This document shows positions 16,655 through 63,836 of a DNA stretch of 64,000 nucleotides, piece by piece (position 1 is the stretch's first letter; every line of letters starts with the position of its first letter). The notes beneath the pieces were generated by a model. The model did no database searches and was not told the origin of the DNA. It was given only the letters and a program-made list of their open reading frames with translations. The position numbers and the translations under genes are program-made. This DNA comes from Reyranellaceae bacterium. GTDB lineage: Bacteria > Pseudomonadota > Alphaproteobacteria > Reyranellales > Reyranellaceae. The stretch covers positions 1-64,000 of the forward strand of contig JALHMM010000025.1 of the NCBI GenBank assembly GCA_022844045.1, given 5' to 3'.

Positions 16655-17137
16655 TTAGGTGGCGACGGCCGTGGCGAGATCGTAGGTGACGGCGAACGGC
16701 GTGCTCGCCTCGGTGGCCTCAACCGACTGGTTGTGGAAGGTCGACTCGATCTTCGTGAAGTTCATCGAGATCGACTCATGCGGGCGGTCGCCGCCCGAAC
16801 TGACCGAGAAGCCGCTGATCAGCGTGTTCGTCAGCAGCAGCTCCATGATGGTGTTGACGCCCTGGTCGCTGGTCGTCGTCAGGTGGACGGTGACATCCTC
16901 GCCTTCCGTACCGACATAGGACCGCTTCAGCAGCTCCGGGGACGCGCCGTCCTGCGGCTTGGTGACCACGACCTCGCTGATCGAGACCATCGAGGCTTCG
17001 CGGTTCTTGGCCGAACCGGTCGACGTGCCGATCGCGCGGCCACCGCCCCACTGGATCGAGTCACAGGTAATCCACTTCTCATGCGACGCAGCCGTGGCAT
17101 CGCCTTCGATCGGACCATACTTCACGTAGATCGCCAT
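16655..17137 (-). CDS. hcp: Hcp tube protein, third copy
   Basis: The 160-residue Hcp homolog has MAIYVKYGPIEGDATAASH, WITCDSIQWGGGRAIGTS, ISEVVVTKPQDGASPELL, SSGGDRPHESIS and MNFTKIESTF. An unusually good ribosome site (aaggaggag) lies six bases before its ATG, fitting a protein needed in large amounts. It is the first hcp after clpV on the same strand, with 115 bases between that hold a small hairpin (17153-17169) and the palindrome at 17237-17252. Confidence 0.94.
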   Translation of the reverse strand: MAIYVKYGPIEGDATAASHEKWITCDSIQWGGGRAIGTSTGSAKNREASMVSISEVVVTKPQDGASPELLKRSYVGTEGEDVTVHLTTTSDQGVNTIMELLLTNTLISGFSVSSGGDRPHESISMNFTKIESTFHNQSVEATEASTPFAVTYDLATAVAT

Positions 17138-17236
17138 TTTGCTCCTCCTTCTGGACCGGTCTTCGGTCCGCCTGATCTGTCGTTCGGGGCTCTAACCGCT
17201 CGCCCCTGAGCGGCCATCTCGCCGCCGCCCCGACGC

Positions 17237-17252
17237 TCACTCAACTGAGTGA
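17237..17252. repeat. short palindrome between clpV and hcp
   Basis: The 7-base arms tcactca and tgagtga face each other across two bases, immediately after the clpV stop and about 100 bases before the hcp start. It is too short and lacks a T run for a terminator. It could be a protein-binding site for separate hcp control, but nothing else supports that. Confidence 0.35.
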
Positions 17253-19889
17253 TTACTCAATCTTGTACTCGAACTTCTGATCCTTGTCTACCCCCACATG
17301 CACCTTGTTGATAACTTTGCCGTCGGCGAGGGCGGACAGGAAATGGCCGGAGAGTTCCGGCAGCATGGTGCGCTGGATGATCTGCTCGATGTTGCGGGCG
17401 CCGGACTCGACCTCGGTGCAGCGCGCGGCGATGGCATCGACCATCGCCTCGTCGTAAACCATTGTGGCCTTGTAGTTTTCCGCCACGCGCTTGACCACGC
17501 GACCAAGCTGCAGCCGGACGATCTTCTTGATCGTCGAGTCGTCCAGCGGATAGTAGGGCACCACCGTGATACGGCCGATGAAGGCCGGCTTGAAGGTCTT
17601 CAACAGCTCTGGATGCAGCGAGCTGGCAAGCGCCTCGGGGTTCGGCCGCGTCTCCGGATCGGCGCAGAGCTTGGCGATCAGATCCGTGCCGGCATTCGAC
17701 GTCAGGATAATGACGGTGTTCTTGAAGTCGATGTCACGGCCTTCGCCGTCACGCAGCATGCCCTTATCGAACACCTGGTAGAACACGTCCTGAACGCCCG
17801 GGTGAGCCTTCTCGACCTCGTCGAGCAGCACCACCGAATAGGGATGGCGCCGCACCGCTTCGGTGAGCACGCCACCCTCGCCGTAGCCGACATAGCCCGG
17901 CGGCGAGCCCACGAGCATCGAGACTTTGTGCTCTTCCTTGAACTCCGACATGTTGATGATCGTCAGCGCTTGGTCGCCGCCGTACATTTCCTCGGCGAGC
18001 GTCAGCGCGGTCTCGGTCTTGCCGGTGCCCGATGTGCCGGCGAGCATGAAGACGCCCAGCGGCTTGCGCGGATCCTGCATGCGCGCGCGTGCCGTGCGCA
18101 TGCCCTTGGCGATGATCTCCAGCGCGTGATCCTGGCCGATGACGCGCTCCGCCATCTTGTCCTTCAGGTTCAGCACGGTGCGGATCTGGTCGCCCAGCAT
18201 GCGGCCGACCGGAATGCCGGTCCAGTCGCCGACGATGGCGGCGGCCGCCTGGGCGTCGACCAGCGGCAGCACCAGCGGCGACTCGCCCTGCAGCTTTTTC
18301 AGCGCCTCCCATTTCTCGTCGAGCTGCGCCTTCTTGGCCGGACGCTCGGCCTCGTTGGTCTCGCCCTCGAGCTCGGCGCGCAGCTTGGTGACCTCGTCGA
18401 CGAGGACCTTCTCCTGTTTCCAGCGCTCCTCCATCGCCACCAGCTCTTCCTTGAGCTTGGCCAGCAATTCCTCGCCCTCGGTGATCTCTTCCTGGTGGTC
18501 GGTGCCCGCCTGCTGCTCGCGCTTCTGGATGTTGATCAGGTTGTCGAGCAGGCCGATGCGGCGGCGCAGATCCTCGACCGCCGGCGGCGTCGAGGCGAGA
18601 CCCATGGCGACGCGCGCGCAGGCCGTGTCGAGCACGCTGATCGCCTTGTCGGGCAATTGCCGGCCGGCGATGTAGCGGTTGGACAGACGCACGGCCTCCT
18701 GCACCGCCTCGTCGAGCACGCGCACCTGATGGTGCTTTTCCATGACGTTGGCGATACCGCGCAGCATGTCGATGCCCGACTTCTCGTCCGGCTCCTCGAC
18801 CTTGACCACCTGGAAGCGCCGCGTCAGCGCCGGGTCGCGCTCGAAGTACTTCTTGTACTCCGCCCAGGTCGTAGCCGCGATGGTGCGCAGCTCGCCGCGC
18901 GCCAGCGCCGGCTTCAGCAGGTTGGCGGCGTCGCCCTGACCAGCCGCGCCACCGGCGCCGATCATCATGTGGGCTTCGTCGATGAACATGATGATGGGCT
19001 GCGGCGAGGCCTTGACGTCCTGCAGCACGCTGTTCAGCCGGTTCTCGAACTCGCCCTTCATGCCGGCGCCGGCCTGCAGCAGGCCGAGATCGAGCACGCG
19101 AATGGCGCAGTTCTTCAGCTTATCCGGCACATCGCCATCGGCGATCTTCAGCGCCAGGCCGTCGACCACCGAGGTCTTGCCGACGCCGGCCTCGCCGGTG
19201 AGGATCGGGTTGTTCTGGCGACGGCGCAGCAGGATGTCGATGCACTGCCGGATCTCGTTGTCACGGCCCAGCACCGGATCGAGCTTGCCGCTCTTGGCGC
19301 GCGCCGTCAGATCGGTGGTGTAGAGGTCGAGCGCGCCGGTCTTGGCGCCTGCCGGCCGTGGGGCACCCGCGCCACCGGCGGACTGCACGTCCTGCGCTAC
19401 CTCGGCCGCCTTGGCCTCCGACGAGCCGTCGGTCGCGGCATCGAAATCGCGCGCCAGCGCCTCGACGGGAATCTTCGAGAGCTGGCTCGACGTGTTGCGC
19501 GCGGCGATCGCCATGGTCTCGTCGCTCAGCATCGCCACCAGGATGTGGCCCGAGCGCACCTGCGGCGAGGACTTGTTGACCGAGGCGAAGAGGTAGGCCT
19601 CGCTGGCCAGCTTGACGATCTGCGGCGCCAGCGCCGGCGGCCGGCCGTTGCCGGTCTTGAAGCGATCGATGGCGCGATTGAGGTCGGCACTGAGCCGGCC
19701 GACATCGGCCTCGTACTTGCCCATGATCTTGGCGATGTCGTTATCGGCGACATCGAGGATCTTCAGCAGCCAATGCTCGATCTCGACGTTGTAATTGGTC
19801 CGGGACATCGTCAGTCCGGCGGCCGCTTCGAGCGCTTTGCGGCAGGGATCATTGAGCTTTGTGACAAGCGACTTGAGATCAACGGCCAT
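17253..19889 (-). CDS. clpV: T6SS sheath-recycling ATPase ClpV (TssH)
   Basis: The 878-residue AAA+ protein has an N-domain (EAAAGLTMSRTNYNVEIEHW), a first nucleotide site with Walker A GEAGVGKTS at about residue 232, the sensor block MFIDEAHMMIGAGGAAGQGD, a coiled-coil middle domain at about 430-540, and a second Walker A GTSGTGKTE at about residue 617. The ClpV form differs from ClpB in its N-domain and in the link to T6SS. It unfolds contracted TssB/TssC sheaths in the cytoplasm. The start codon follows a gggga stretch. The hcp genes follow downstream on the same strand. Confidence 0.96.
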   Translation of the reverse strand: MAVDLKSLVTKLNDPCRKALEAAAGLTMSRTNYNVEIEHWLLKILDVADNDIAKIMGKYEADVGRLSADLNRAIDRFKTGNGRPPALAPQIVKLASEAYLFASVNKSSPQVRSGHILVAMLSDETMAIAARNTSSQLSKIPVEALARDFDAATDGSSEAKAAEVAQDVQSAGGAGAPRPAGAKTGALDLYTTDLTARAKSGKLDPVLGRDNEIRQCIDILLRRRQNNPILTGEAGVGKTSVVDGLALKIADGDVPDKLKNCAIRVLDLGLLQAGAGMKGEFENRLNSVLQDVKASPQPIIMFIDEAHMMIGAGGAAGQGDAANLLKPALARGELRTIAATTWAEYKKYFERDPALTRRFQVVKVEEPDEKSGIDMLRGIANVMEKHHQVRVLDEAVQEAVRLSNRYIAGRQLPDKAISVLDTACARVAMGLASTPPAVEDLRRRIGLLDNLINIQKREQQAGTDHQEEITEGEELLAKLKEELVAMEERWKQEKVLVDEVTKLRAELEGETNEAERPAKKAQLDEKWEALKKLQGESPLVLPLVDAQAAAAIVGDWTGIPVGRMLGDQIRTVLNLKDKMAERVIGQDHALEIIAKGMRTARARMQDPRKPLGVFMLAGTSGTGKTETALTLAEEMYGGDQALTIINMSEFKEEHKVSMLVGSPPGYVGYGEGGVLTEAVRRHPYSVVLLDEVEKAHPGVQDVFYQVFDKGMLRDGEGRDIDFKNTVIILTSNAGTDLIAKLCADPETRPNPEALASSLHPELLKTFKPAFIGRITVVPYYPLDDSTIKKIVRLQLGRVVKRVAENYKATMVYDEAMVDAIAARCTEVESGARNIEQIIQRTMLPELSGHFLSALADGKVINKVHVGVDKDQKFEYKIE

Positions 19890-20172: not shown

Positions 20173-21441
20173 ATGATGACCGATACGCCCTTGTGCCCGA
20201 CCGTCAGTGAGGCGCTCGCGGGCTTGCGTGACGGCGGCCTGACGCCCCAGAGCCTGCTTGATCGCTGCTTCGCGCGCATTCATGCGCGGGAGCAGGCGGT
20301 CGGCGCCTGGCAGACGATCGACGAGCCGGCGACGCGGCGCATCGCCGGCATGAACCTGGTCGGCCCGCTGGCCGGCCTGCCGGTTGGCGTGAAGGACATC
20401 ATCGACACGGTCGACCTGCCGACCGGCTACGGCTCGCGGGCTTTCGTAGGGCATCGCACGAGCGCCGATGCCGCCTGTGTCGCCGCACTGCGCTATGCCG
20501 GGGCCATCGTCCTCGGCAAGACCGTCAGCACCGAGTTCGCCTCGATGCATCCCGGCAAGACGCGCAACCCGCATGACCTGAAGCACACCCCGGGCGGCTC
20601 CTCGAGCGGCTCGGCAGCGGCCGTGGCCGACGGCATGGTGCCGGTGGCGCTGGGCACGCAGACCGCCGGCTCGGTGATCCGCCCGGGCTCGTTCTGCGGT
20701 GTGGTCGCCTACAAGGGCTCCTATGGCTGGACGGATACGGCGGGCATTCATCCGCTGGCGCCGTCCTTCGACACGCTGGGCTTCTATACCCGTGCCGTCG
20801 CCGACGTCGCGCCGGTGCGCGCCGCCCTGGCGGAGGGCGCGCGCGATCGCGTCAGCGCGCGCAAGCCTATGATCGGCCTGTGCCGCACGCCGCAATGGGA
20901 CCAGGCCGGTCCGGGCACAAAGCGCGTGGTGGAAAGCGCGTTCGAGAAACTGCGGGCCGCCGGCGCCGCGACCTTCGAGGTGGTCTGCCCGCCGTCCTGG
21001 AATGACCTCGTCGAGACCCACCGCCGCTTCATGCTGCGCGAGATGCCGGCGATCTTCGAGAAGATCATCGCCGAGCATGGCGGCAAAATCAGCAAGGGCT
21101 TCAAGGAGCAGGTGAAGGAAGGCGCCTCGATCTCGGCCGCCGATGCCGCCGTGCTGGCGCAGGCGATCACCGATCGTCGCGGCGACTTCACGCGCATGAT
21201 CGGGCGCGGCGAGATCTGGCTGACGCCGGCGGCGCCCGACGAGGCGCCGCAGGGTATCGATCGCACCGGCGATCCGCTGTTCAACCGCCTATGGACCCTG
21301 CTCGGTGGGCCGCTGATGTCGATCCCCGCCGGCACGGGTGCCAAGGGGCTGCCGATCGGCGTGCAACTGGTCGGCGCGCCGGGTGCCGACGACGATCTGA
21401 TCGACGCGGCCGCCTGGGTCGAGGCGGCGCTGGCCGAATGA
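20173..21441 (+). CDS. amidase (amidase-signature family)
   Basis: The protein has 422 residues from ATG 20173 (or 421 from 20176, which is better spaced from aggggag). The amidase-signature triad is present: Lys in VGVKDIID, cis-Ser in GGSSSGSAAAVADG, and the nucleophile Ser in GTQTAGSVIRPGSF. The GTQTAGS form, in place of GTDTGGS, marks a subgroup of aliphatic amide and allophanate-like hydrolases. It lies just before the IclR regulator and transporter genes on the same strand, so it may release ammonia or an acid from the imported compound. The substrate is not predictable. Confidence 0.88.
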   Translation: MMTDTPLCPTVSEALAGLRDGGLTPQSLLDRCFARIHAREQAVGAWQTIDEPATRRIAGMNLVGPLAGLPVGVKDIIDTVDLPTGYGSRAFVGHRTSADAACVAALRYAGAIVLGKTVSTEFASMHPGKTRNPHDLKHTPGGSSSGSAAAVADGMVPVALGTQTAGSVIRPGSFCGVVAYKGSYGWTDTAGIHPLAPSFDTLGFYTRAVADVAPVRAALAEGARDRVSARKPMIGLCRTPQWDQAGPGTKRVVESAFEKLRAAGAATFEVVCPPSWNDLVETHRRFMLREMPAIFEKIIAEHGGKISKGFKEQVKEGASISAADAAVLAQAITDRRGDFTRMIGRGEIWLTPAAPDEAPQGIDRTGDPLFNRLWTLLGGPLMSIPAGTGAKGLPIGVQLVGAPGADDDLIDAAAWVEAALAE

Positions 21442-21470
21442 TATGGTTTGAGATCGGGCATTCAGTGATC

Positions 21471-21486
21471 TGGCACGGTGCTCGCA
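21471..21486 (+). promoter_or_regulatory. possible sigma-54 promoter ahead of the IclR-ABC operon
   Basis: The sequence tggcacggtgctcgca matches the -24/-12 pattern TGGCACG-N4-TTGCA with one mismatch, and there are exactly ten bases between the GG and GC pairs. It points toward the iclR gene and lies 40 bases upstream of the operator-like palindrome. No enhancer-binding regulator gene is nearby, so a chance match is possible. Confidence 0.35.
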
Positions 21487-21525
21487 TTGACTCCGGCGCG
21501 GATCGGCCGTTACGCTGATCAAAAT

Positions 21526-21542
21526 ATGGAACGCTGTTCCAT
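21526..21542. promoter_or_regulatory. palindromic operator of IclR type
   Basis: The palindrome tggaacgctgttcca (15 bases; A/T flanks extend the symmetry) lies 17 bases before the IclR-family start codon. IclR regulators typically bind TGGAA-N-TTCCA-like sites near their own promoters, so self-control and control of the following operon are likely. Confidence 0.65.
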
Positions 21543-21558
21543 TTTCCGGGACTGACCG

Positions 21559-22332
21559 ATGGGCGCGCTGTCGAATGCGGTGGCCATCCTGCGCTGGGCG
21601 CGGGGACGCGAACCCGACTTCGGCGTGAGCGAGGTGGCGCTGGGGCTCGACATGCCCAAGAGCACGGCGTCGCGACTGCTCAAGGACATGGCGGGGCAGG
21701 GTCTGCTCGAGCGCGATGCCGCCACGCAGCGCTACCGCGTCGGCATGTTGCTGCTGGAGCTCGGCCGCCAGTATCGCGCCGGCCAGCCGCTGGTCGAGGC
21801 GGCCGATACGGCTCTGATCGAGCTCACGCGCCGGACCGGCTTCGCCACGGGCATCAGCTTGCTCGACGGCATCGAGGTCGTCGTGCTGCGCTCGCGGCCC
21901 GGCACGCATCCGCTGCAGGTCGTCACGCCGCCGGGCGCGCGCGGCCCGGCCTGGGCCAACTCCACCGGCCGTAATCTGTTGGCGCGCCTGACTGACGCCG
22001 AGATCGCGCGGCGCTTCTCCCCCTATCCGACACTCGATCGGCCGAACGCGCCGGCGAATCTCGGCCAGCTGATGGAGCGTATCGGCCGCGCCCGCGCGCG
22101 TGGCTTCGATGAATCCGACGACGAGGCGCTGCCGGGTGTCGCCGCGGTATCGGTGGCGATCGCCGATCCGCAGTCGGGCGACGCGATGTCCCTGTACATC
22201 GCGTTCTCTGGCCTGCACGTGAACCGCCAGCGTCGCCGCGAGCTCGCCACCATGCTGCTGAACGTCAAGATGAAGCTGATCGACCGCTTCGGCGAGGAAC
22301 CCTTGACCGAGCCGAGGCGCGCGCATGGCTAG
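21559..22332 (+). CDS. IclR-family transcriptional regulator
   Basis: The 257-residue protein has an N-terminal winged helix (NAVAILRWA, then VSEVALGLDMPKSTASRLLKDMAGQGLLERD) and the IclR ligand domain (GFATGISLLDGIEVVVLRS, ARGPAWANSTGRNLLA, ALPGVAAVSVAIAD). IclR proteins sense small organic effectors and usually control neighbouring catabolic or uptake genes. Its stop overlaps the start of the first permease gene by eight bases, so it is in one transcript with the ABC transporter. Confidence 0.93.
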   Translation: MGALSNAVAILRWARGREPDFGVSEVALGLDMPKSTASRLLKDMAGQGLLERDAATQRYRVGMLLLELGRQYRAGQPLVEAADTALIELTRRTGFATGISLLDGIEVVVLRSRPGTHPLQVVTPPGARGPAWANSTGRNLLARLTDAEIARRFSPYPTLDRPNAPANLGQLMERIGRARARGFDESDDEALPGVAAVSVAIADPQSGDAMSLYIAFSGLHVNRQRRRELATMLLNVKMKLIDRFGEEPLTEPRRAHG

Positions 22333-23233
22333 CGTCGCGCTCGATGATGTCGCGCCATTACCGGCGATGCGTCGGCGCGGTGTGTCGCCGATCGCCTGGC
22401 TGGCGGCGCCGGCCCTGCTGCTCTTCGTTGTCTTCTTCGTGCTGCCATTCGGCGTGATGGCGCTGCTGTCGTTCCTCAGTGGCAATCCCGCCACCAATCC
22501 GAACACGATCTGGACCACGCGCCACTACGAGCGCTTTCTCGGCGACGACCTCTATCACGACGCGCTGTGGTCGACCCTGCGCATCGGCCTGATCACAACC
22601 ATCGTCGCCCTGCTGATCGGCTATCCGCTGGCCCATTGGATGGCGCGCATGAAGTCGCGCATCGGTCACGCGGCGCTCCTGATGGCGGTGATCGCGCCCA
22701 TGCTGACCGGCATTGTCGTGCGCACCTTCGCCTGGATGACGATCCTGCAGGACAAGGGCGTGATCAACACCACGCTGATCGAGATCGGCCTGATCGAGAA
22801 GCCGCTACCGCTGATGTACAACGAGTTCGGCACGATCGTGGCCCTGGTGCACATCTACGTGCCGTTCATGGTGCTGACGCTCACCGGCGTGATCGGCCGT
22901 ATCGACGAGCGCCTGGAGCAGGCGGCGCGCAATCTCGGCGCCACGCGCACGCGTGCCTTCGTCGAGGTCACCCTGCCGCTCAGCCTTCCCGGCATCCTCG
23001 CCGGCTCGCTGCTGGTCTTCGCGCTGTCGATCAGCGCCTATGTCACGCCCTTCCTGATGGGCGGCACCAACGTGCTGACCTTGCCGATGATGATCTATCA
23101 GCAGGTCAGTTCGTCCTTCAACGTCGGCTTCGCCGGCGCGCTGGGCGTCGTGCTGCTGGCGGTCTCGCTGGTGATCATCGTCGCCTACAACCGCGTGCTG
23201 GCCCGCCTCTCCGGCGACGAGGCGCTGACATGA
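22325..23233 (+). CDS. ABC transporter permease (PotB-like)
   Basis: This 302-residue inner-membrane protein has six hydrophobic segments and the EAA loop EQAARNLGATRTRAFVEVTLPLSLPGI characteristic of spermidine/putrescine-type importers. Hydrophobic LLLFVVFFVLPFGVMALLS opens the membrane part after a short cytoplasmic tail. It overlaps the regulator gene upstream and shares ATGA with the next permease gene. The cargo class is polyamine-like or another small cationic or amide compound. Confidence 0.92.
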   Translation: MASVALDDVAPLPAMRRRGVSPIAWLAAPALLLFVVFFVLPFGVMALLSFLSGNPATNPNTIWTTRHYERFLGDDLYHDALWSTLRIGLITTIVALLIGYPLAHWMARMKSRIGHAALLMAVIAPMLTGIVVRTFAWMTILQDKGVINTTLIEIGLIEKPLPLMYNEFGTIVALVHIYVPFMVLTLTGVIGRIDERLEQAARNLGATRTRAFVEVTLPLSLPGILAGSLLVFALSISAYVTPFLMGGTNVLTLPMMIYQQVSSSFNVGFAGALGVVLLAVSLVIIVAYNRVLARLSGDEALT

Positions 23234-24048
23234 GCGCGCCCCGAATGAACGCCAGGCGATTCGATGCCGGCCGGGCGGCGTATCTCACGCTCAACGGCGC
23301 CATCTTGACCTTCCTGCTGGCGCCGCTGGCGATTGTCGCGGTCTTCGCGCTCAATCCGACGCCCTACATCTCCTTCCCACCGGTCGGCGTCACGACGCGC
23401 TGGTTCGAGAAGTTCTTCGCCACCGACGACTTCATGCGCTCGCTGTGGCTCAGCCTGCGCGTGGCGGCGATGGTGCTGGTGCTGTCGACGACCATCGGCG
23501 CGATGTGCGCGTTGGCGCTGGCGCGTGGGCGCCTGCCCGGCGCGCGGGTGCTGACCGCCTTCTTCATGTCGCCGCTGATGCTGCCGGCGATCCTCACCGG
23601 CCTGGCGCTTTTCCAGGTGCTGCTGCTGTCGGGCGTCGGCCGTCCGGTCTGGGGTTTGGTGCTGGGCCACACGCTGGTCGCCGTGCCCTATGTGCTGCGC
23701 ACGACCCTGGCGGTGCTGGCCAATTTCGACACCAAGGTCGAGGAGGCCGCCGCCAGCCTGGGCGCTTCGCCGATGCGCGTCTTCTTCGAGGTGACCCTGC
23801 CGCTGATCCGCCCGGGCGTGATCGCCGGCGGCATCTTCGCCTTCATCGTCTCCTTCGACCAGTTCCCGATCTCGCTGTTCCTCGTGCTGCCCAAGGGCGA
23901 GACGCTGCCGGTCGTGCTGTTCAACTACATGAAGTTCGACCTCGATGGCGCGATCGCCGCGGCCTCGATGGTTTCCATTCTGATGGCGTTGAGTGTCGTG
24001 CTCCTGCTGGAGCGTGTGATCGGTCTGAAAGCCTACGTGAAGCTCTGA
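23230..24048 (+). CDS. ABC transporter permease (PotC-like)
   Basis: The 272-residue second permease has six membrane segments and the EAA loop KVEEAAASLGASPMRVFFEV. The start ATG at 23230 overlaps the stop of the preceding gene (ATGA). Upstream sequence in the same frame is a shadow of that gene. It would form the membrane heterodimer with the PotB-like protein. Confidence 0.92.
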   Translation: MSAPRMNARRFDAGRAAYLTLNGAILTFLLAPLAIVAVFALNPTPYISFPPVGVTTRWFEKFFATDDFMRSLWLSLRVAAMVLVLSTTIGAMCALALARGRLPGARVLTAFFMSPLMLPAILTGLALFQVLLLSGVGRPVWGLVLGHTLVAVPYVLRTTLAVLANFDTKVEEAAASLGASPMRVFFEVTLPLIRPGVIAGGIFAFIVSFDQFPISLFLVLPKGETLPVVLFNYMKFDLDGAIAAASMVSILMALSVVLLLERVIGLKAYVKL

Positions 24049-24068
24049 TCTCGAATGGAGGATTGCCA

Positions 24069-25115
24069 ATGACTCGTCTATCCCGCCGCACCGCGTTGAA
24101 AGTCGCCGCCGCGTCGGCCGTCGCCACCCTGGCGGCGCCGGCGATCCTGCATGCGCAGGTCAAGACCCTGAAGATCACCACCTGGGGCGGCAAGTGGGGC
24201 GAGATCATGAAGGGCACGGTGCTGCCGGCCTTCGAGAAGGAGTTCAAGTGCACGGTGTCGGCCGACCAGGCCTTCCCGTTCCTGCCCAAGCTGCAGGCCG
24301 CGCCCAAGAACGATCCGATCTACGACGTGCTGCACACCAACTCGAATGAGCAGTGGAATGCGGTCGAGCAGGGCATCGTGATGTCCAAGATCACGCCCAA
24401 GGAAGTGCCCAATGTCGCCGACGTGTATCCCTACGCGGTGAGCGACAAGATCGTCGGCGTGTCGATCTTCACCTCGGCCATCGGCCTGGGCTATCGCACC
24501 GACAAGGGCCTGACCCCGCCCAAGTCGTGGAAGGATCTCGCCGACCGCAAGCTCGATGGCGCGCGGGGCGGCTACATCATCCCGGTCAACAGCCTGGGCC
24601 AAGCGCACCTGATGATGCTGGGCAAGATCTACGGCAAGGGCATGCAGGACCTCGACGCCGCCTACAAGGCGCTCGAGCAGCTCAAGCCGATCAAGATGGT
24701 CGACTTCACCGGCCAGATGGAAAAGATGCTGCTGAGCGGCGAGGTCACCATGGGCGTGATCCACGACAGCGGCATCTACCGCTATGACGGCCAGAACCAG
24801 CCGGTCGACTTCGCGATCCCCAGCGAGGGCGTGCTGGCGCTGGAGCAGGTGCTGAACGTCACGCCGGGCAGCAAGGTCAAGGAACTGGCCTTCGCCTATA
24901 TCGACTTCATGCTGCGGCCCGACATCCAGAAGCAGCTGGCCGAAGGCGTCTGGTACTCGCCGTCGAACAAGAAAGTGAAGCTCGATCCCAAGTACGACGC
25001 CAAGCTGTTCAACACCGAGGCCAAGGTGGCGCAGCTCATCCAGCCCGACTGGAAGTGGTACAACGCGCGCAAGGACGACATCGACGCCCGCGTCGCGCGT
25101 CTGCTGCGCGGCTGA
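24069..25115 (+). CDS. ABC transporter substrate-binding protein (PotD-like, Tat-type signal)
   Basis: The 348-residue protein begins with a twin-arginine signal (SRRTALKVAAASAVATLAAP, cut near AILHAQ) and continues with KTLKITTWGGKWGEIMKGTV, the fold of family 1/8 binding proteins for polyamine-type importers. A Tat signal implies export of the folded protein to the periplasm. A ggagg site precedes the ATG. The gene follows the permeases by 20 bases and is separated from the ATPase gene by a paired-palindrome repeat. Confidence 0.92.
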   Translation: MTRLSRRTALKVAAASAVATLAAPAILHAQVKTLKITTWGGKWGEIMKGTVLPAFEKEFKCTVSADQAFPFLPKLQAAPKNDPIYDVLHTNSNEQWNAVEQGIVMSKITPKEVPNVADVYPYAVSDKIVGVSIFTSAIGLGYRTDKGLTPPKSWKDLADRKLDGARGGYIIPVNSLGQAHLMMLGKIYGKGMQDLDAAYKALEQLKPIKMVDFTGQMEKMLLSGEVTMGVIHDSGIYRYDGQNQPVDFAIPSEGVLALEQVLNVTPGSKVKELAFAYIDFMLRPDIQKQLAEGVWYSPSNKKVKLDPKYDAKLFNTEAKVAQLIQPDWKWYNARKDDIDARVARLLRG

Positions 25116-25130
25116 TGATGGCGCTCTTTC

Positions 25131-25260
25131 CTACCTTCCCCCGGAGGGGGAAGGTGGCGCGCGCAGCGCGACGGATGGGGGATGCCTCAACGCGTCGGGT
25201 GTCCGTCTTCGACATCCCCCATCCGCCCTTCGGGCACCTTCCCCCTCCGGGGGAAGGTAA
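25131..25260. repeat. paired-palindrome intergenic repeat, copy 1 (inverted orientation)
   Basis: Both ends are the palindrome tacctTCCCCC-N-GGGGGaaggt, and the inner sequence pairs (gatgggggat with atcccccatc), so the whole 130 bases can fold as one long hairpin. The two arms differ in a short block: the left has gcgcgcagcgc, the right has gcccttcgggc. Copies at 26341 and 63706 have these blocks swapped, so this copy lies in the opposite orientation. It sits between the binding-protein and ATPase genes. Confidence 0.9.
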
Positions 25261-25271
25261 GGCGGCACGCC

Positions 25272-26324
25272 ATGCGTGAATCCGCATCGATCCGCATCGA
25301 TGGCGTGACCAAGACCTTCGACGGCCGGGTCATGGCCGTCGACGACGTCACGCTCGACATCCAGGCCGGCGAGTTCTTCTCGTTGCTGGGACCGTCGGGC
25401 TGCGGCAAGACCACGACCTTGCGTCTGATCGCCGGCTTCGAGATCGCCGATGCCGGCCGCATCGTCGTCGGCGGCCGCGATATCACCGACCTGCCGGCGC
25501 ACAAGCGCGACATGGGCATGGTGTTCCAGTCCTACGCGCTCTTCCCGCACCGCACCGTGGCGGAGAACGTCGCCTTCGGTCTGCGCATGCGCGGCCTGCC
25601 CAAGGCGGAGATCGCCGAGCGCGTCGCGGCGGCGCTCAAGCAAGTGGCGCTCGACGGTTACGAAGCGCGCCGGCCCTCGCAGCTCTCGGGCGGTCAGCAG
25701 CAGCGCGTGGCGCTGGCGCGCGCCGTCGTCATCCGCCCCGCCGTGCTGCTGTGCGACGAGCCGCTGGGCGCGCTCGACCGCAAGCTGCGCCAGTCCATGC
25801 AGTTCGAGCTCAAGCAGCTGCAGAAGGAGCTCGGCGTCACCTTGGTCTTCGTCACGCACGACCAGGAGGAGGCGCTGGCGATGTCCGACCGCATCGCCGT
25901 CATGAACGCCGGCAAGGTCGAGCAGGTCGGCGCGCCCCAGGAGATCTACGATCGCCCGCGCACGCGCTTCGTCGCCGACTTCATCGGCGAGATCAACATG
26001 TTCGAGGGCGCCTGGAGCGGCGGGCGTTTCGTGATGGGCCACGGCCGCGCCCTGCCGGCGGCGAGCGCCAGCGGACGTACGGGAGCGGGCATGATCGCCG
26101 TGCGGCCGGAGAAGACGCGCCTTGTCGGCGAGGTCGATGGCGCGTTGGGCGGCCGCATCGAGAGCGCCAACTTCCTCGGCGGCCATGTGCTCTACCGCGT
26201 CGTCACCGACGAGGGCCGCGCCGTGCTGGCCAAGGAACAGAACGTCGGCGACAGCGGCCGCAAGGTCGGTGACCGCGTCGGCGTCGCTTGGATGCCGTCC
26301 GACGCGGTGAGCTTGGAGGCGTGA
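25272..26324 (+). CDS. ABC transporter ATPase (PotA-like)
   Basis: The 350-residue ATPase has Walker [11 protein letters not shown]-loop [10 protein letters not shown], signature [14 protein letters not shown], Walker [13 protein letters not shown] and the switch His in [11 protein letters not shown]-terminal TOBE domain (about residues 270-350) fits the spermidine/putrescine and sulfate class. The ATG at 25272 is used because upstream codons lie in the repeat. The ribosome site taagg directly abuts the end of that repeat. Confidence 0.94.
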
Positions 26325-26340
26325 GGATGAACGCGACTCT

Positions 26341-26471
26341 TACCTTCCCCCGGAGGGGGAAGGTGCCCGAAGGGCGGATGGGGGATGTTGAAGACGAACT
26401 GAGGAGTCCGTCTTCAAAATCCCCCATCCGTCGCGCTGAAGCGCGCCACCTTCCCCCTGCGGGGGAAGGTA
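26341..26471. repeat. paired-palindrome intergenic repeat, copy 2
   Basis: The layout is as in the 25131 copy but with the asymmetric blocks reversed (gcccgaagggc on the left, gcgctgaagcgcgc on the right), so it has the same orientation as the 63706 copy. The inner loop carries gaagacg and cgtcttc, which extend the stem. It lies between the ATPase gene and the AroM-like gene, and its last bases run straight into the aaaggag ribosome site of the latter. Confidence 0.9.
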
Positions 26472-26484
26472 AAGGAGATGCATC

Positions 26485-27156
26485 ATGACCCGTACGCTCG
26501 GCATCGCGGTGATTGGTCAGGCGCCGCGCGATGACATCGCCGCCTTGTTCGCGGCACAGGCGCCGGCCGGCACGAGGGTGATCCTGCGTGGCTGTCTTGA
26601 CGGCATGAGCGACGCCGAGATCGCGGCGGTCGCGCCGGTCGACGGTGCGGATACGCTCTACACGCGCCTGTCCGGCGATCGCGACGTGAAGATCTCGAAG
26701 AAGGCCGTGATCGCGCGCGCGCCCCAGACCTTGGCGAAGCTGCGCGACGACGGCGCCGATGCGCTGGTCTTCAACTGCACCGGCGCTTTTCCCTCGATGC
26801 CGGGCGATGCCGGGGTGCTGTTCCCCTCGCGTGTGTTGGCGGGGTTGAGCGCGGGGCTGCTACCGACTGGCCGGCTGGGTCTTTTGGTGCCGCTGGCCGA
26901 GCAGGCCGCCAAGCTCACCGAGAAGTGGCAACGGCCGGGCATCGAAGTGTTCGCCGAGGCGCTGGCGCCCAGCGCTGGCGACGCCGAGATCGAGGCCGCC
27001 GCGGCGCGTCTGAAGGCAAAGGCGCCCGACCTGATCGCCATGGACTGCATGAGCTATACGCCGGCCACCAAGGACATCGTCAAGCGCGTCTCGGGCGTGC
27101 CGGCGTTGCTGGGCGTCACCGCCACGGCGCGCGTGCTGCGCGAATTGCTGGAGTAG
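26485..27156 (+). CDS. AroM-family protein
   Basis: The 223-residue protein matches the AroM family: LGIAVIGQAPRDDI at the start, RGCLDGMSDAEIAAV, DTLYTRLSGD, ALVFNCTGAFPSM, LGLLVPLAEQ and MDCMSYTPA. AroM proteins have an Asp/Glu racemase-like fold with Cys residues in the places seen here (NCTG and MDCM), but their reaction is not established. Here it sits two bases before the DUF917 pair, in an operon with a HyuA-like protein, which fits a racemase or hydrolase acting on a hydantoin or amino-acid-derived compound. That role is inference. Confidence 0.85.
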   Translation: MTRTLGIAVIGQAPRDDIAALFAAQAPAGTRVILRGCLDGMSDAEIAAVAPVDGADTLYTRLSGDRDVKISKKAVIARAPQTLAKLRDDGADALVFNCTGAFPSMPGDAGVLFPSRVLAGLSAGLLPTGRLGLLVPLAEQAAKLTEKWQRPGIEVFAEALAPSAGDAEIEAAAARLKAKAPDLIAMDCMSYTPATKDIVKRVSGVPALLGVTATARVLRELLE

Positions 27157-27158
27157 AG

Positions 27159-28238
27159 ATGGACCGCGAGATCACGCTCGACGATATCGAATCGCTCGCA
27201 GTCGGCGCCTGGGTGCTGGGCACCGGCGGCGGCGGCAGCCCGTATCTCGGCCTGCTCAACATGCGCCGCCTCTACCGCGAGGAGAATCTGCGGGTAAGGC
27301 TGATGAGCCCCGACGACCTTGCCGACGACGACATGGTCGCCGCGGTATCGAACATGGGCGCGCCGCTGGTCGGCCAGGAGCGGCTCACCGACAGCCGCAC
27401 CATCGCGCGCGCCGTGGCGCTGATGGAGGAGCACACCGGCAAGCGCTTCCGTGCGATCATGTCGCTGGAGATCGGCGGCGGCAATTCGATCCAGCCGCTG
27501 ATGGCCGCGGCGCATCTGGGCCGGCCGGTGGTCGACGCCGACATGATGGGCCGAGCCTATCCCGAGGCGCAGATGACCTCGGTCGCGGTCGGCGACCTCA
27601 CGCCATGCCCGCTATCGACCGTCGACGTGCGCGGCCTGGAATCGATCGTCGACAAGGTGCCGACCTGGAAATGGATGGAGCGGGTCAGCCGCAAGATCTG
27701 CGTCGAGTACGGCTCGATCGCCTCGACCTGCAAGGCACCGCGCACCGGCGCCGAGGTCAAGAAATGGGGCATCAAGTACACCACGACCAAAGCGATCAAG
27801 ATCGGCCATGCGGTGCGCGAGGCGCAGCGCCGGCATGAGGATCCGATCGAGGCGATCCTCTCGGTCGAGCCGGGCAAGGTGCTCTATCGCGGCAAGGTCA
27901 AGGACGTCGAGCGGCGCACCACCGAGGGCTTCCTGCGCGGCCGCACGCGCTTCGAGGGCATGGACGAGTATCGCGGCGCCTCGATGGAGATCGCCTTCCA
28001 GAACGAGTGGATCGTCGCCTGGCGCGACCAGCAGCCGATCGCCATGTCGCCCGACCTGATCTGCGTGCTCGACAGCGTCTCGGGCGAGGCGGTGGGCACC
28101 GAGACCATCCGCTATGGCCAGCGTGTCACCGTGATCGCGCTGCCGCCGCCGGAGGTCTTCCTGTCGCCCAAGGGCTTGCAGCATGTCGGCCCGCGCGCCT
28201 TCGGCTACGACATCGAGTTCCGGAGCGTCTTCGCGTGA
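27159..28238 (+). CDS. DUF917 family protein (S-methyl-thiohydantoin desulfurase-like), copy 1
   Basis: The 359-residue protein has the DUF917 opening (EITLDDIESLAVGAWVLGTG GGG region), then NMGAPLVGQERLTDS, EIGGGNSIQPLMAA, VVDADMMGRAYPEAQMTS and the C-terminal CVLDSVSGEAVGTETIRYGQ. The family is linked to hydantoin and thiohydantoin metabolism and usually sits beside HyuA-type genes, as here. It starts two bases after the AroM-like stop and shares GTGA with a close paralog. No signal or membrane segment is seen. Confidence 0.9.
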   Translation: MDREITLDDIESLAVGAWVLGTGGGGSPYLGLLNMRRLYREENLRVRLMSPDDLADDDMVAAVSNMGAPLVGQERLTDSRTIARAVALMEEHTGKRFRAIMSLEIGGGNSIQPLMAAAHLGRPVVDADMMGRAYPEAQMTSVAVGDLTPCPLSTVDVRGLESIVDKVPTWKWMERVSRKICVEYGSIASTCKAPRTGAEVKKWGIKYTTTKAIKIGHAVREAQRRHEDPIEAILSVEPGKVLYRGKVKDVERRTTEGFLRGRTRFEGMDEYRGASMEIAFQNEWIVAWRDQQPIAMSPDLICVLDSVSGEAVGTETIRYGQRVTVIALPPPEVFLSPKGLQHVGPRAFGYDIEFRSVFA

Positions 28239-29317
28239 GCCTGCGCGACGTCACGCTCGACGACATCGAATCGCTTGCGGTCGGCGCCTGGGTGCTGGGC
28301 ACCGGTGGCGGCGGCAACCCCTATCTGCCGCTGCTCAACATGCGCGCGTTGTACCGTGAGGGCTATCGCTGCCAGCTGATGTCGTCAGACGATCTCGCTG
28401 ACGACGACTGGGTCGGCACCGTCGCCAATATGGGCGCGCCGCTGGTGGGGCAGGAGCGGCTGACCGATAGCATCACCTTGGCACGCGCCGTGACGGCGAT
28501 GGAGAAGCACATCGGCAAGCGCTTCCGCGCTCTGATGAGCATGGAGATCGGCGGCGCCAACGGCGTGCGGCCGTTCATGGCGGCGGCGCACCACAAGTTG
28601 CCGGTGGTCGACAGCGACACCATGGGGCGTGCCTACCCCGAGGCGCAGATGACCTCGGTCGCGGTCGGCGGTCTCACGCCCTATCCGCTAACCGCCGTCG
28701 ATGTGCGCGGCTTCGAGAGCATCGTGCACAAGGTGCCGACCTGGAAATGGACGGAGCGCGTCGGCCGCAAGATCTGCGTCGAGTACGGTTCGGTCGCCGC
28801 CACCTGCCAGCCACCGCGGACCGGTGCCGAGGTCAAGAAGTGGGGCATCCACGGCACCACGACCAAGGCCATCGCCATCGGTGCCGCTGTCCGCGAAGCC
28901 CAGCGCAAGCACGACGATCCGATCGCCGCGATCCTCTCGGTCGAGCCCGGCAAGCTGCTCTACACCGGCAAGGTGGTCGACGTGGCGCGGCGCACCACCG
29001 AGGGCTTCCTGCGCGGCGTGGTGCGCTTCGACGGGCTCGACGACTATCGCGGCTCGGCGATGACCATCAACTTCCAGAACGAGTGGATCGTCGCATACCG
29101 CGACGAGCAGCCCGTCGCCATGACCCCCGACCTGATCTGCGTGCTCGACTCGGTGTCGGGCGAGGCGGTGGGCAGCGAGACGATCCGCTATGGTCAGCGC
29201 GTCACCGCGATCGCGCTGCCGCCACCCGAGGTTTTCCTTTCGGAAAGAGGCCTGCAGCACGTCGGCCCGCGCGCCTTCGGCTACGACCTCGACTTCAGGA
29301 GCGTGTTTTCGTCATGA
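28235..29317 (+). CDS. DUF917 family protein, copy 2
   Basis: The 360-residue protein is a tandem paralog of the preceding gene and alike over its full length (by eye well over half of residues identical, for example TLDDIESLAVGAWVLGTG and EAQMTSVAVG). Differences cluster in the candidate active region: MEIGGANGVRPFMAA replaces LEIGGGNSIQPLMAA. It starts with GTG overlapping the previous stop, which fixes the start. The two may form a hetero-oligomer or act on different isomers. Confidence 0.9.
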   Translation: MSLRDVTLDDIESLAVGAWVLGTGGGGNPYLPLLNMRALYREGYRCQLMSSDDLADDDWVGTVANMGAPLVGQERLTDSITLARAVTAMEKHIGKRFRALMSMEIGGANGVRPFMAAAHHKLPVVDSDTMGRAYPEAQMTSVAVGGLTPYPLTAVDVRGFESIVHKVPTWKWTERVGRKICVEYGSVAATCQPPRTGAEVKKWGIHGTTTKAIAIGAAVREAQRKHDDPIAAILSVEPGKLLYTGKVVDVARRTTEGFLRGVVRFDGLDDYRGSAMTINFQNEWIVAYRDEQPVAMTPDLICVLDSVSGEAVGSETIRYGQRVTAIALPPPEVFLSERGLQHVGPRAFGYDLDFRSVFSS

Positions 29318-30852
29318 GACGCATTGGCATCGATGTCGGCGGCACCAATACGGATGCGGTGCTGATCGAGGACGGCAAGGTAACCGGCGCGGTCAAGGCG
29401 CCGACCAGCGAGGACGTCACGACGGGCATCCTCGATGCGCTGAAGGCGCTCGCCGCGACCGGCGTGCTGAAGGGCAAGCGCATCGACGGCGTGATGATCG
29501 GCACCACGCATTTCATCAACGCCGTGGTGCAGCGCCGCCATCTCACCAAGGTCGGCGCGCTCAGGCTGGGCATGCCGGCCTCGGCCTCGCTCCCGCCATT
29601 CTGCGACTGGCCGGAGGATCTCGCCGAGATCGTGCGCGGCGGCGTGTGGATGGTGGAAGGCGGCCACGAGTTCGACGGACGACCCTTCATGCCGCTCGAC
29701 GAGGCGGCGATCATGGCGGCGGCGCGGGAGATGAAGGCCAAAGGCCTGAAGTCGGTGGCGATTTCGGCGATCTTCTCGCCGCTCGATCCCTCGCACGAGA
29801 AGCGCGCGGCGGAGATCGTCGCCGGCGAGGTGCCCGGCGTTTCGATCACCTGCTCGTCCGATCTCGGCCGCATCGGCCTGCTGGAGCGCGAGAATGCCGG
29901 GCTGCTCAATGCCGGCCTGGCCGATCTGGCGCGCGACACCATCGCCGCCTTCGAGCAATCGATCCGCGACAGCGGCATCGCCGCACCGCTCTACATCACG
30001 CAGAACGACGGCACCGTGGTCGAGGCGGTGCAGGCGCGCCGCCTGCCGGTCTACAGCTTCGCCTCTGGTGCGACCAACTCGATGCGTGGCGGCGCCTATC
30101 TCTCGGGCCTGCTGGACGCCATGGTTATCGATGTCGGCGGCACCACGACCGATGTCGGCCAGTTGCGCCACGGCTTTCCGCGCGAGGCCAACTCCGTCGT
30201 GCGTGTGGGCGGCGTGCGCACCCTGTTCCGCATGCCCGACCTCATGTCGATCGGCCTGGGCGGCGGCAGCCATGTCTCGCTTGATCCGCTGAAGGTCGGC
30301 CCGCTATCGGTGGGCTACAAACTGCTGCGCGAGGGCATCGCCTTCGGTGGTACGCAGCTCACCACCACTGATATCGCCATCGCCGCCGGCCGCCTCGGGC
30401 TGGGCGACAAGGCGAAGGTTGCCCACCTCGACGCCGCGACCTGCGCCCGCGTTTTCGGCGAGGCCAAGCGCATGGTCGAGGAGACGGTCGATCGCATGAA
30501 GACCGAGGCCGGCGACGTGCCGTTGATCGCCGTCGGCGGCGGGGCCTTCCTGGTGCCCGACAAGCTCGAGGGCGTGTCCGAGGTCATCCGCGTGCAGTAC
30601 GGCGATTGCGCCAACGCCGTGGGCGCGGCGATCGCCCAGGTCTCCGGTGAGTGCGATCAGATCTTCCGCGACATGGCCCGCGTCGACGCCATCGCCCGTG
30701 CCAACGAGCTGGCCGCCGATCGCGCCGTCTCGGCCGGCGCCGACCGCGCTACGCTCTCGATCATCGAGACCGAGGACATGCCGCTGGCTTATCTGCCGGG
30801 CAACGCCTTGCGGGTACGCGTGCGCGTCGTGGGCGACGTGGCCGCGACCTGA
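29314..30852 (+). CDS. hydantoinase/oxoprolinase family protein (HyuA-like, short form)
   Basis: The 512-residue protein has the HyuA N-terminal ATPase fold (MRRIGIDVGGTNTDAVLIED, MIGTTHFINAVVQRR) and the hydantoinase A core (FASGATNSMRGGAYLSGL, MVIDVGGTTTDVGQL, SIGLGGGSHV). It lacks the ~200 C-terminal residues of full HyuA, as is usual for forms partnered with DUF917. The family uses ATP to open 5-membered cyclic amides. No HyuB gene is present, so the DUF917 pair probably supplies the partner function. It overlaps the upstream gene by ATGA and ends the operon, facing hemN across 13 bases. Confidence 0.9.
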   Translation: MRRIGIDVGGTNTDAVLIEDGKVTGAVKAPTSEDVTTGILDALKALAATGVLKGKRIDGVMIGTTHFINAVVQRRHLTKVGALRLGMPASASLPPFCDWPEDLAEIVRGGVWMVEGGHEFDGRPFMPLDEAAIMAAAREMKAKGLKSVAISAIFSPLDPSHEKRAAEIVAGEVPGVSITCSSDLGRIGLLERENAGLLNAGLADLARDTIAAFEQSIRDSGIAAPLYITQNDGTVVEAVQARRLPVYSFASGATNSMRGGAYLSGLLDAMVIDVGGTTTDVGQLRHGFPREANSVVRVGGVRTLFRMPDLMSIGLGGGSHVSLDPLKVGPLSVGYKLLREGIAFGGTQLTTTDIAIAAGRLGLGDKAKVAHLDAATCARVFGEAKRMVEETVDRMKTEAGDVPLIAVGGGAFLVPDKLEGVSEVIRVQYGDCANAVGAAIAQVSGECDQIFRDMARVDAIARANELAADRAVSAGADRATLSIIETEDMPLAYLPGNALRVRVRVVGDVAAT

Positions 30853-63705: not shown

Positions 63706-63836
63706 TACCTTCCCCCGGAGGGGGAAGGTGCCCGAAGGGCGGATGGGGGATGTCGAAGACGGACTCCCTCGTTCGTCTTCAACATCCCCCATCCGTCGCG
63801 CTGCGCGCGCCACCTTCCCCCTCCGGGGGAAGGTAG
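63706..63836. repeat. paired-palindrome intergenic repeat, copy 4
   Basis: The copy is nearly identical to that at 26341 in both arms (taccttcccccggaggggga, gcccgaagggcggatggggg; cccccatccgtcgcgctgcg, accttccccctccggggg), with the inner gaagacg/cgtcttc pair kept. It lies 11 bases after the mmsA stop and can fold as a long hairpin. Confidence 0.92.

What the first reader, a model, noticed from the sequence alone, without database searches (positions are those of the whole stretch)
20173..30852. Putative cyclic-amide uptake and opening operon with an unusual partner set
Seen: amidase, IclR regulator with a palindromic operator, a full PotABCD-type importer, an AroM-family protein, two adjacent DUF917 proteins and a short HyuA-like protein, linked by ATGA/GTGA overlaps except at two repeats. 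Known: DUF917 is associated with (thio)hydantoin chemistry and HyuA proteins open cyclic amides with ATP; AroM has no proven reaction. No HyuB is present. Inference: the DUF917 pair replaces HyuB, AroM acts as a racemase or C-N/C-S hydrolase, and the importer brings in the ring compound.
Basis: partly seen in the sequence, partly recalled or inferred. Interest (0 to 1): 0.8.

Follow-up and report, generated by a model that had tools for sequence, protein, structure and literature searches.

The report
HyuB-less DUF917/HyuA ring-opening operon
A conserved bacterial operon pairs an importer and a racemase-like protein with an ATP-binding-type protein that lacks its usual partner enzyme and sits beside a DUF917 protein instead, which points to an untested second way of breaking down small nitrogen rings.

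Summary
The gene list is right and the neighbourhood strongly conserved; the inferred roles are partly supported. All ten genes fall in the named families. Short HyuA directly follows DUF917 in 72 of 74 related loci with room. In an evenly drawn class sample, 15 of 16 genomes with AroM also have DUF917, against 43 of 387 overall, 14 of the 15 within 4 kb. This genome has nine HyuA and eight HyuB matches; only the window's short HyuA lacks HyuB. The DUF917 pair is not the HyuB substitute: 13 of 80 loci are tandem, and D2 is one faster-evolving duplicate. AroM keeps both racemase-type cysteines in 80 of 80 enzyme-length homologues; 30 of 30 longer ones have lost both, carry a LuxR helix-turn-helix, and 29 stand head-to-head with DUF917. 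Five of ten tested DUF917s without HyuA nearby pass a thiohydantoin-desulfurase cut-off; none of twelve HyuA-linked ones does. Best reading: import, epimerisation and ATP-driven opening of a hydantoin- or ureide-like ring by DUF917 plus short HyuA. No substrate has been shown.

The parts
20173..21441 (+). amidase-signature hydrolase, nearest solved relative malonamidase E2; loosely linked, own transcript possible
   Evidence: PF01425 203.6 bits; 1ock E 7e-63; kept in congeners but at varying distance from iclR
21526..21542 (.). palindromic operator ATGGAACnnnGTTCCAT
   Evidence: 1 match, 0.04 expected; same place before iclR in L044, L046; related form in L051, L055/L108, L141; not seen in most other upstream regions examined
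21559..22332 (+). IclR-family regulator
   Evidence: PF01614 and PF09339
22325..23233 (+). PotB-like permease
   Evidence: PF00528; 168.1 bits to PotB, under its cut-off 348
23230..24048 (+). PotC-like permease
   Evidence: PF00528; 131.4 bits to PotC, cut-off 326
24069..25115 (+). solute-binding protein of the polyamine/opine/GABA-sensor kind
   Evidence: PF13416; solved relatives 3pu5, PotD, MotA, GABA-sensor precursor
25129..25261 (.). dispersed palindromic repeat, first copy
   Evidence: arms; the genome search was run with the second copy
25272..26324 (+). PotA-like ATPase
   Evidence: TIGR01187 374.5 bits, cut-off 355.6
26338..26474 (.). dispersed palindromic repeat, second copy; 40 places scored of 525 candidates in the genome
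26485..27156 (+). AroM, two-cysteine (C98, C188) racemase-type
   Evidence: PF07302 201.4 bits; both Cys in 80 of 80 enzyme-length homologues
27159..28238 (+). DUF917 protein D1, the slower-evolving copy
28235..29317 (+). DUF917 protein D2, lineage-specific duplicate, GTG start
   Evidence: one clade of 26 second copies, support 100/100; faster evolution, conserved residues kept
29314..30852 (+). short HyuA (512 aa), ASKHA ATPase fold, no HyuB partner
   Evidence: PF05378, PF01968; model pLDDT 89.4, best matches N-methylhydantoinase, carboxylases and CapA

Best explanation
The operon imports and opens a 5-membered cyclic ureide (hydantoin- or allantoin-like), or a close lactam, for nitrogen and carbon. 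Shown: the genes, their conservation, the constant DUF917 + short HyuA pair without HyuB, the two-cysteine AroM, the conserved operator, one D1/D2 duplication. Inferred: (1) the Pot-type importer brings the compound in; (2) AroM shuttles a proton at the ring's chiral carbon between C98 and C188, so that both enantiomers can be used; (3) short HyuA activates a ring carbonyl with ATP, giving an O-phospho-imidate; (4) DUF917, whose free-standing relatives are named as (S-methyl)thiohydantoin desulfurases, that is enzymes for rings already carrying a leaving group at C2, adds water to the HyuA-activated ring, which opens; (5) D2 is a second, specialised version for another substrate or a mixed oligomer; (6) the amidase may trim the open product; (7) IclR controls the transport-catabolic genes from 21526-21542.
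For: DUF917 next to short HyuA in 72 of 74 loci with room (loci are the 80 best of 566 relatives, so biased to close kin) and in all 18 of the 21 annotated records read that hold DUF917 or HyuA, among them Lactobacillales, Bacillales, Actinomycetes and Haloferax (the other three were read for AroM). On two Lactobacillales plasmids and one Sodalis plasmid the module within 6 kb is a cytosine/purine/allantoin-type permease + DUF917 + short HyuA, with a PucR regulator annotated in the two Lactobacillales (permease family checked in two of the three, PucR in one); such a permease is also annotated beside the pair in Parageobacillus and a Streptomycetaceae plasmid. In Novosphingobium the module is HyuA-DUF917-racemase, and that racemase is closest to hydantoin and allantoin racemases. 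HyuA phosphate motifs are invariant in 17 aligned; DxGGTxTD is in 132 of 133 short HyuA. AroM cysteines 80 of 80, aligned with two cysteines of the putative hydantoin racemase 2eq5. Nine HyuA, eight HyuB in the genome.
Against: No substrate, ATPase or complex has been tested. HyuA's adenosine motif GxxPGP, named for CapA in PMC8453981 (passages), is absent from 133 of 133 short HyuA, while the three classical long HyuA in the same set have it (L124, a 660-aa reading without it, set aside), so ATP use is not certain. 2eq5 matches the AroM profile only at E 0.053, and hhalign with one Asp/Glu racemase gave probability 24. The solute-binding protein's relatives bind polyamines, opines or GABA, not rings. 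Dpp-type importers stand in 25 of 50 wide loci, which suggests peptide-like substrates. If DUF917 on a phospho-imidate only expelled phosphate, as a desulfurase expels sulfur, the cycle would be futile; ring C-N cleavage has to be assumed. 18 of 50 wide loci lack AroM.
Confidence: 0.45

Rival explanations
1. The module degrades cyclic dipeptides (diketopiperazines) or their derivatives: imported like dipeptides, epimerised by AroM, opened by DUF917/HyuA, cut by peptidases.
For: Dpp-type importers in 25 of 50 wide loci; dipeptidase, isoaspartyl peptidase, M20 and Xaa-Pro peptidase neighbours; PMC11055893 section 6 (passage read) reports DUF917, AroM and PF01177 enriched in cyclodipeptide-oxidase-like operons.
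Against: The three small permease modules have no annotated peptide importer or peptidase within 6 kb; no gene is annotated as a cyclodipeptide oxidase in the 18 annotated DUF917/HyuA loci read (not searched by profile); the ten-gene stretch has neither Dpp importer nor peptidase, only an amidase.
Confidence: 0.17
2. D1 and D2 are thiohydantoin or S-alkyl-thiohydantoin desulfurases and HyuA then opens the resulting hydantoin alone.
For: Same family as two named NCBIfam desulfurase models; the 26 second copies keep the family's invariant residues except in three cells.
Against: D1 and D2 score 108 and 105 bits against a cut-off of 450; 0 of 12 HyuA-linked DUF917 pass either desulfurase model, against 5 of 10 tested DUF917 without HyuA nearby.
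Confidence: 0.1
3. Short HyuA is not a substrate kinase but an ATP-driven activase or reactivase of DUF917, like MutL/GlmL or CoA-dehydratase activases.
For: Weak matches to MutL, GlmL and acyl-CoA dehydratase activase models, and to BcrAD_BadFG and MutL in the L. plantarum protein; no GxxPGP in 133 of 133 short HyuA; about 180 residues shorter than CapA (512 against 696), with Pfam Hydantoinase_A matched only in positions 1-176 of 291.
Against: By far the best fold and sequence matches are substrate-activating HyuA chains; DUF917 shows no invariant Cys or His that would suggest a cofactor needing reactivation; free-standing DUF917 exist without HyuA nearby.
Confidence: 0.13
4. The importer sets the substrate: a polyamine-, opine- or GABA-derived lactam such as a pyrrolidone, opened by HyuA/DUF917.
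For: Solute-binding protein nearest to polyamine/opine/GABA-type proteins; Pot-type importer together with AroM, DUF917 and HyuA in 26 of 80 loci.
Against: The same enzyme pair is served by Pot-, Dpp- or cytosine-permease-type transporters elsewhere, so transporter family is a poor guide.
Confidence: 0.1

Closest known systems
ATP-dependent caprolactamase CapAB / 5-oxoprolinase / N-methylhydantoinase (HyuA+HyuB)
   Same: HyuA fold and both phosphate motifs; caprolactamase chain 6yra_A TM 0.77 by query length
   Different: HyuA 512 aa instead of about 690, no GxxPGP, no HyuB; DUF917 instead
Thiohydantoin desulfurase and S-methyl thiohydantoin desulfurase (NF058529, NF058532)
   Same: both domains of DUF917 over nearly the whole length
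   Different: scores about a quarter of the cut-off; linked to HyuA, which the five qualifying desulfurases found here are not
CDO-like operons with DUF917, AroM and hydantoin racemase (Andreas and Giessen 2024, PMC11055893, outline and passages seen)
   Same: DUF917 and AroM together, guess that they are hydantoinase and isomerase
   Different: no oxidase among the ten genes here; the main text has no 'oxoprolinase', so the short HyuA is not described under that name
AroM of Escherichia coli
   Same: Pfam family PF07302
   Different: E. coli AroM has Ser at the first cysteine site and differs at other conserved sites; the curated model NF007788 is not reached by the window protein, 175.4 of 198
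Hydantoin/allantoin racemases (Asp/Glu racemase superfamily)
   Same: two cysteines at matching places; such a racemase stands where AroM would be beside HyuA-DUF917 in Novosphingobium
   Different: sequence similarity near the limit (E 0.053)

Membership tests
DUF917 / S-Me-THD-like (PF06032 + PF20906) | both domains above gathering score | tested here: met
   D1 186.3 and 231.6 bits, D2 175.8 and 223.7, cut-off 27
S-methyl thiohydantoin desulfurase (NF058532) | curated score 450 | tested here: not met
   108.1 and 104.9 bits
Thiohydantoin desulfurase (NF058529) | curated score 440 | tested here: not met
   95.0 and 94.3 bits
HyuAB-type ATP-dependent hydantoinase/oxoprolinase | HyuA domains and both phosphate motifs | tested here: met
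   PF05378 139.6, PF01968 102.4 bits; motifs invariant in 17 aligned
HyuAB-type ATP-dependent hydantoinase/oxoprolinase | adenosine motif GxxPGP of CapA | tested here: not met
   absent in 133 of 133 short HyuA, present in the three classical long ones; motif from PMC8453981 (passage)
HyuAB-type ATP-dependent hydantoinase/oxoprolinase | HyuB subunit encoded beside HyuA | tested here: not met
   eight HyuB in the genome, none on the window's contig C25
HyuAB-type ATP-dependent hydantoinase/oxoprolinase | DUF917 structurally a HyuB | tested here: inconclusive
HyuAB-type ATP-dependent hydantoinase/oxoprolinase | ATP hydrolysis coupled to ring opening | not testable with these tools
   needs an assay
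Two-cysteine Asp/Glu/hydantoin racemase superfamily | both catalytic cysteines | tested here: met
   C98 and C188 in 80 of 80 AroM under 265 aa; that racemases of this superfamily use two cysteines is recalled
Two-cysteine Asp/Glu/hydantoin racemase superfamily | significant profile or fold match | tested here: inconclusive
   2eq5 E 0.053; hhalign probability 24; AroM fold not predicted here
AroM (PF07302) | gathering score | tested here: met
   201.4 bits, cut-off 23.8
PotABCD polyamine importer | curated scores of PotA, PotB, PotC, PotD | tested here: not met
   PotA subfamily TIGR01187 met (374.5 of 355.6); PotB 168.1 of 348, PotC 131.4 of 326, PotD 47.0 of 582
IclR regulator | HTH and ligand domain; palindromic operator kept in congeners | tested here: met

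The most novel reading that the evidence does not exclude
DUF917 + short HyuA is a separate, HyuB-less class of two-component ATP-dependent ring hydrolase spread over bacteria and archaea, in which DUF917 does on HyuA-activated rings what its free-standing desulfurase relatives do on sulfur-activated rings; AroM is its racemase; and a cysteine-less AroM fused to a LuxR helix-turn-helix is a racemase turned into the sensor of the same compound.
Probability: 0.33. Interest if true: 0.8.

Novelty: new variant of a known kind. Interest (0 to 1): 0.6.

Why it matters
AroM (named with aroL in E. coli in a 1986 paper, seen only in the reference list), most DUF917 proteins and HyuB-less HyuA proteins have no proven reaction that I found. 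Their linkage, and the small plasmid modules with permease, DUF917 and HyuA, turn three open functions into one test with a short substrate list. A HyuB-less ATP-dependent ring opener would also be a new tool for cyclic amides.

Tried and rejected
Rejected: HyuB hidden nearby (one search finds none on the contig). D2 as a decayed copy: its invariants are kept apart from three cells in 26 second copies. Repeats as operon-specific signals: genome-wide element. DUF917 in viruses: 39 pattern matches in viral contigs, none a relative. E. coli DNA relative of D1-D2: no match by blastn.

Weak points: loci L104-L183 are the best 80 of 566 relatives, so counts favour close kin; some genomes are held twice (L042-L096 and L104-L183), so rows are not independent; of 110 AroM sequences 98 differ. 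The short/long AroM split at 265 aa and the 560-aa split of HyuA are mine. The AroM tree warns of long branches meeting. The two genome samples share members. 'Without HyuA nearby' means no tblastn match of the window's HyuA in a 20-kb stretch. Of such DUF917 I scored 10; L049, L074, L075, L087, L180 and L183 were not scored, and several hits were not fetched. ORF starts in fetched loci were chosen by script. The 14-of-15 and 5-of-6 distances were read off the tables, not computed. Gene tables of the plasmid records are incomplete by the tool's own word.


Full report
Observation. The ten genes are present at the stated coordinates, all on the + strand with intact frames: amidase, IclR, PotB-, PotC-, PotD- and PotA-like, AroM, DUF917 (D1), DUF917 (D2), HyuA. 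Pfam gives clear matches for each. Only PotA reaches a curated NCBIfam score among the importer genes; D1 and D2 resemble the two thiohydantoin desulfurase models at about a quarter of the cut-offs. Junctions are mixed: three 4-base overlaps, one 8-base overlap, two short gaps, two repeat-bearing gaps and one 117-base gap with the operator (coordinates). The repeats belong to a genome-wide palindrome: with the second copy as query, 40 places scored of 525 first-look candidates.

Operator. ATGGAACGCTGTTCCAT occurs once in the window; 0.04 matches are expected with up to two mismatches. In congeners L044 and L046 the arms are identical at the same distance from iclR while the middle bases differ; L051 and L055/L108 keep GGAACnnnGTTCC at nearly the same place, and Azorhizobium L141 has a near form at -47. 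The other upstream regions examined, among them L071, L119 and most Bradyrhizobium, do not show this form there.

Neighbourhood. Of 61 genomes searched as relatives (own included), 32 have DUF917. In the fetched stretches around these the full set PotB-PotC-PotD-PotA-AroM stands with D1(-D2)-HyuA in 22 of 32 stretches of the same family, in two orders; two more are cut by contig ends, and eight lack the set. In named genomes (best 80 of 566 relatives) IclR-PotBCDA-(AroM)-DUF917-HyuA also stands in Bradyrhizobium and Azorhizobium. Counts: HyuA directly after DUF917 in 72 of 74 loci with room (L180 and L183 lack it); tandem DUF917 in 13 of 80; of 50 loci with 8 kb on both sides, AroM or AroM-like in 32, Pot-type importer in 22, Dpp-type in 25, either in 45, HyuB in 3.

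Evenly drawn samples. In 387 genomes drawn from the class, AroM is in 16 and DUF917 in 43; 15 genomes have both (Fisher p 6e-15), and in 14 of the 15 the two lie within 4 kb on one contig (G466 has them on different contigs; read). G461 has a partial AroM match and no DUF917. In 397 genomes of the phylum, AroM is in 16, ten of them in one family (probably the enterics; inference), where AroM is not beside DUF917; of the other six, five have DUF917 within 3 kb and G331 has no DUF917 match. The samples overlap by at least G000 and G005.

HyuA without HyuB. The genome (91.87% complete) holds nine HyuA N-terminal matches and eight HyuB. The eight long HyuA share contigs with the eight HyuB; the ninth, in this window, has none. 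Short HyuA keeps DxGGTxTD and DxGGTTxD and a GGG motif in the 17 aligned; the first motif is in 132 of 133 short HyuA collected. The GxxPGP motif that PMC8453981 gives for CapA (passages) is in none of the 133, but in the three classical long HyuA of the set. The predicted model (pLDDT 89.4) is closest to N-methylhydantoinase, acetone and acetophenone carboxylase and caprolactamase chains, TM 0.66 to 0.77 by query length.

The pair. D1 and D2 are 79% identical. All 26 second copies form one clade (support 100/100) inside the family tree, so one duplication explains them. Second copies differ more between genomes (mean identity 0.80 against 0.90; lower in 307 of 325 pairs), keep the invariants except in three cells, and carry six nearly fixed changes: S27, G31, S64, Q112, S177 and K192. 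This looks like specialisation, not decay. More than one DUF917 with HyuA also occurs in Haloferax mediterranei, Qingshengfaniella and Aminobacter; whether those arose independently was not tested by tree.

AroM. In 80 homologues under 265 aa both C98 and C188 are invariant. The AroM profile finds the putative hydantoin racemase 2eq5 at E 0.053 with two cysteines aligned; hhalign with one Asp/Glu racemase sequence was weak. In other modules an Asp/Glu-type racemase is present: Aminobacter, near a Pot-type importer, HyuA and two DUF917 (importer type by gene order and annotation), and Novosphingobium in HyuA-DUF917-racemase, where that protein is nearest to hydantoin and allantoin racemases. 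E. coli AroM has Ser at site 98, so it is no guide to this enzyme.

Sensor. Thirty longer AroM-like proteins (293 to 349 aa) all carry a C-terminal LuxR/GerE helix-turn-helix (30 of 30). Both cysteines are lost in 30 of 30, while 13 of the 23 columns conserved in the enzyme form are kept in at least 25 of 30; one further column, L131, is Ile or Val in all 30. They form one clade (100/98, 27 distinct; the tree warns of long branches), and 29 of 30 stand head-to-head, 83 to 377 bases from a DUF917 start (the loci had been chosen for DUF917, but not for this arrangement). The window's genome has no such protein (one AroM match in all); there IclR is the regulator. I read this as a racemase fold turned into a sensor of the pathway compound (inference).

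Substrate clues. Two Lactobacillales plasmids carry PucR regulator, cytosine-type permease, DUF917 and HyuA, and Sodalis pSG2 the permease, DUF917 and HyuA without an annotated PucR (Pfam puts two of the three permeases in the family for cytosine, purines, uracil, thiamine and allantoin, and confirms PucR in one). This points to a ureide or nucleobase-like ring and suggests that amidase, HyuB and AroM are dispensable for the core. Dpp importers and peptidases elsewhere point rather to peptide-like compounds. The window's solute-binding protein is of the polyamine/opine/GABA kind. I weigh the ureide reading highest, without proof.

Known or new. PMC11055893 (passages) already reports DUF917, AroM and hydantoin racemase genes enriched together in oxidase-like operons, and guesses hydantoinase and isomerase roles. 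What I did not find in print, are the DUF917/short-HyuA pairing without HyuB, its split from desulfurases, the D2 duplication and the AroM-LuxR sensors. I rate it a new variant of a known kind: HyuA-based ring chemistry with another second subunit.

Noticed in passing
L056:8367-9326 (-), and 29 more such genes in L052-L181, L097, L100: AroM domain without its two cysteines fused to a LuxR-type helix-turn-helix, head-to-head with DUF917 in 29 of 30.
   Followed up: yes
window 25129-25261, 26338-26474 and about 63706-63835: A ~135-base palindrome scattered over the genome: 40 places scored of 525 first-look candidates; function unknown.
   Followed up: partly
L191, L192, L193 (Lactiplantibacillus, Pediococcus, Sodalis plasmids): Small-plasmid modules of cytosine-type permease + DUF917 + short HyuA, with a PucR regulator annotated in the first two.
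   Followed up: partly
L184:1501-2178: E. coli AroM lacks the first cysteine of the two-cysteine AroM and differs at other conserved sites, so the family name hides at least three kinds.
   Followed up: partly
L181:414-3188, L102 and L190: DUF1177 and AroM-family genes stand together with OPT or Dpp transporters, with no DUF917 beside AroM in L102 and L190: another AroM context.
   Followed up: no
window 16655-19889 (-): By translation alone these look like a ClpV-type ATPase and an Hcp-like protein of a type VI secretion system; names recalled, not searched.
   Followed up: no
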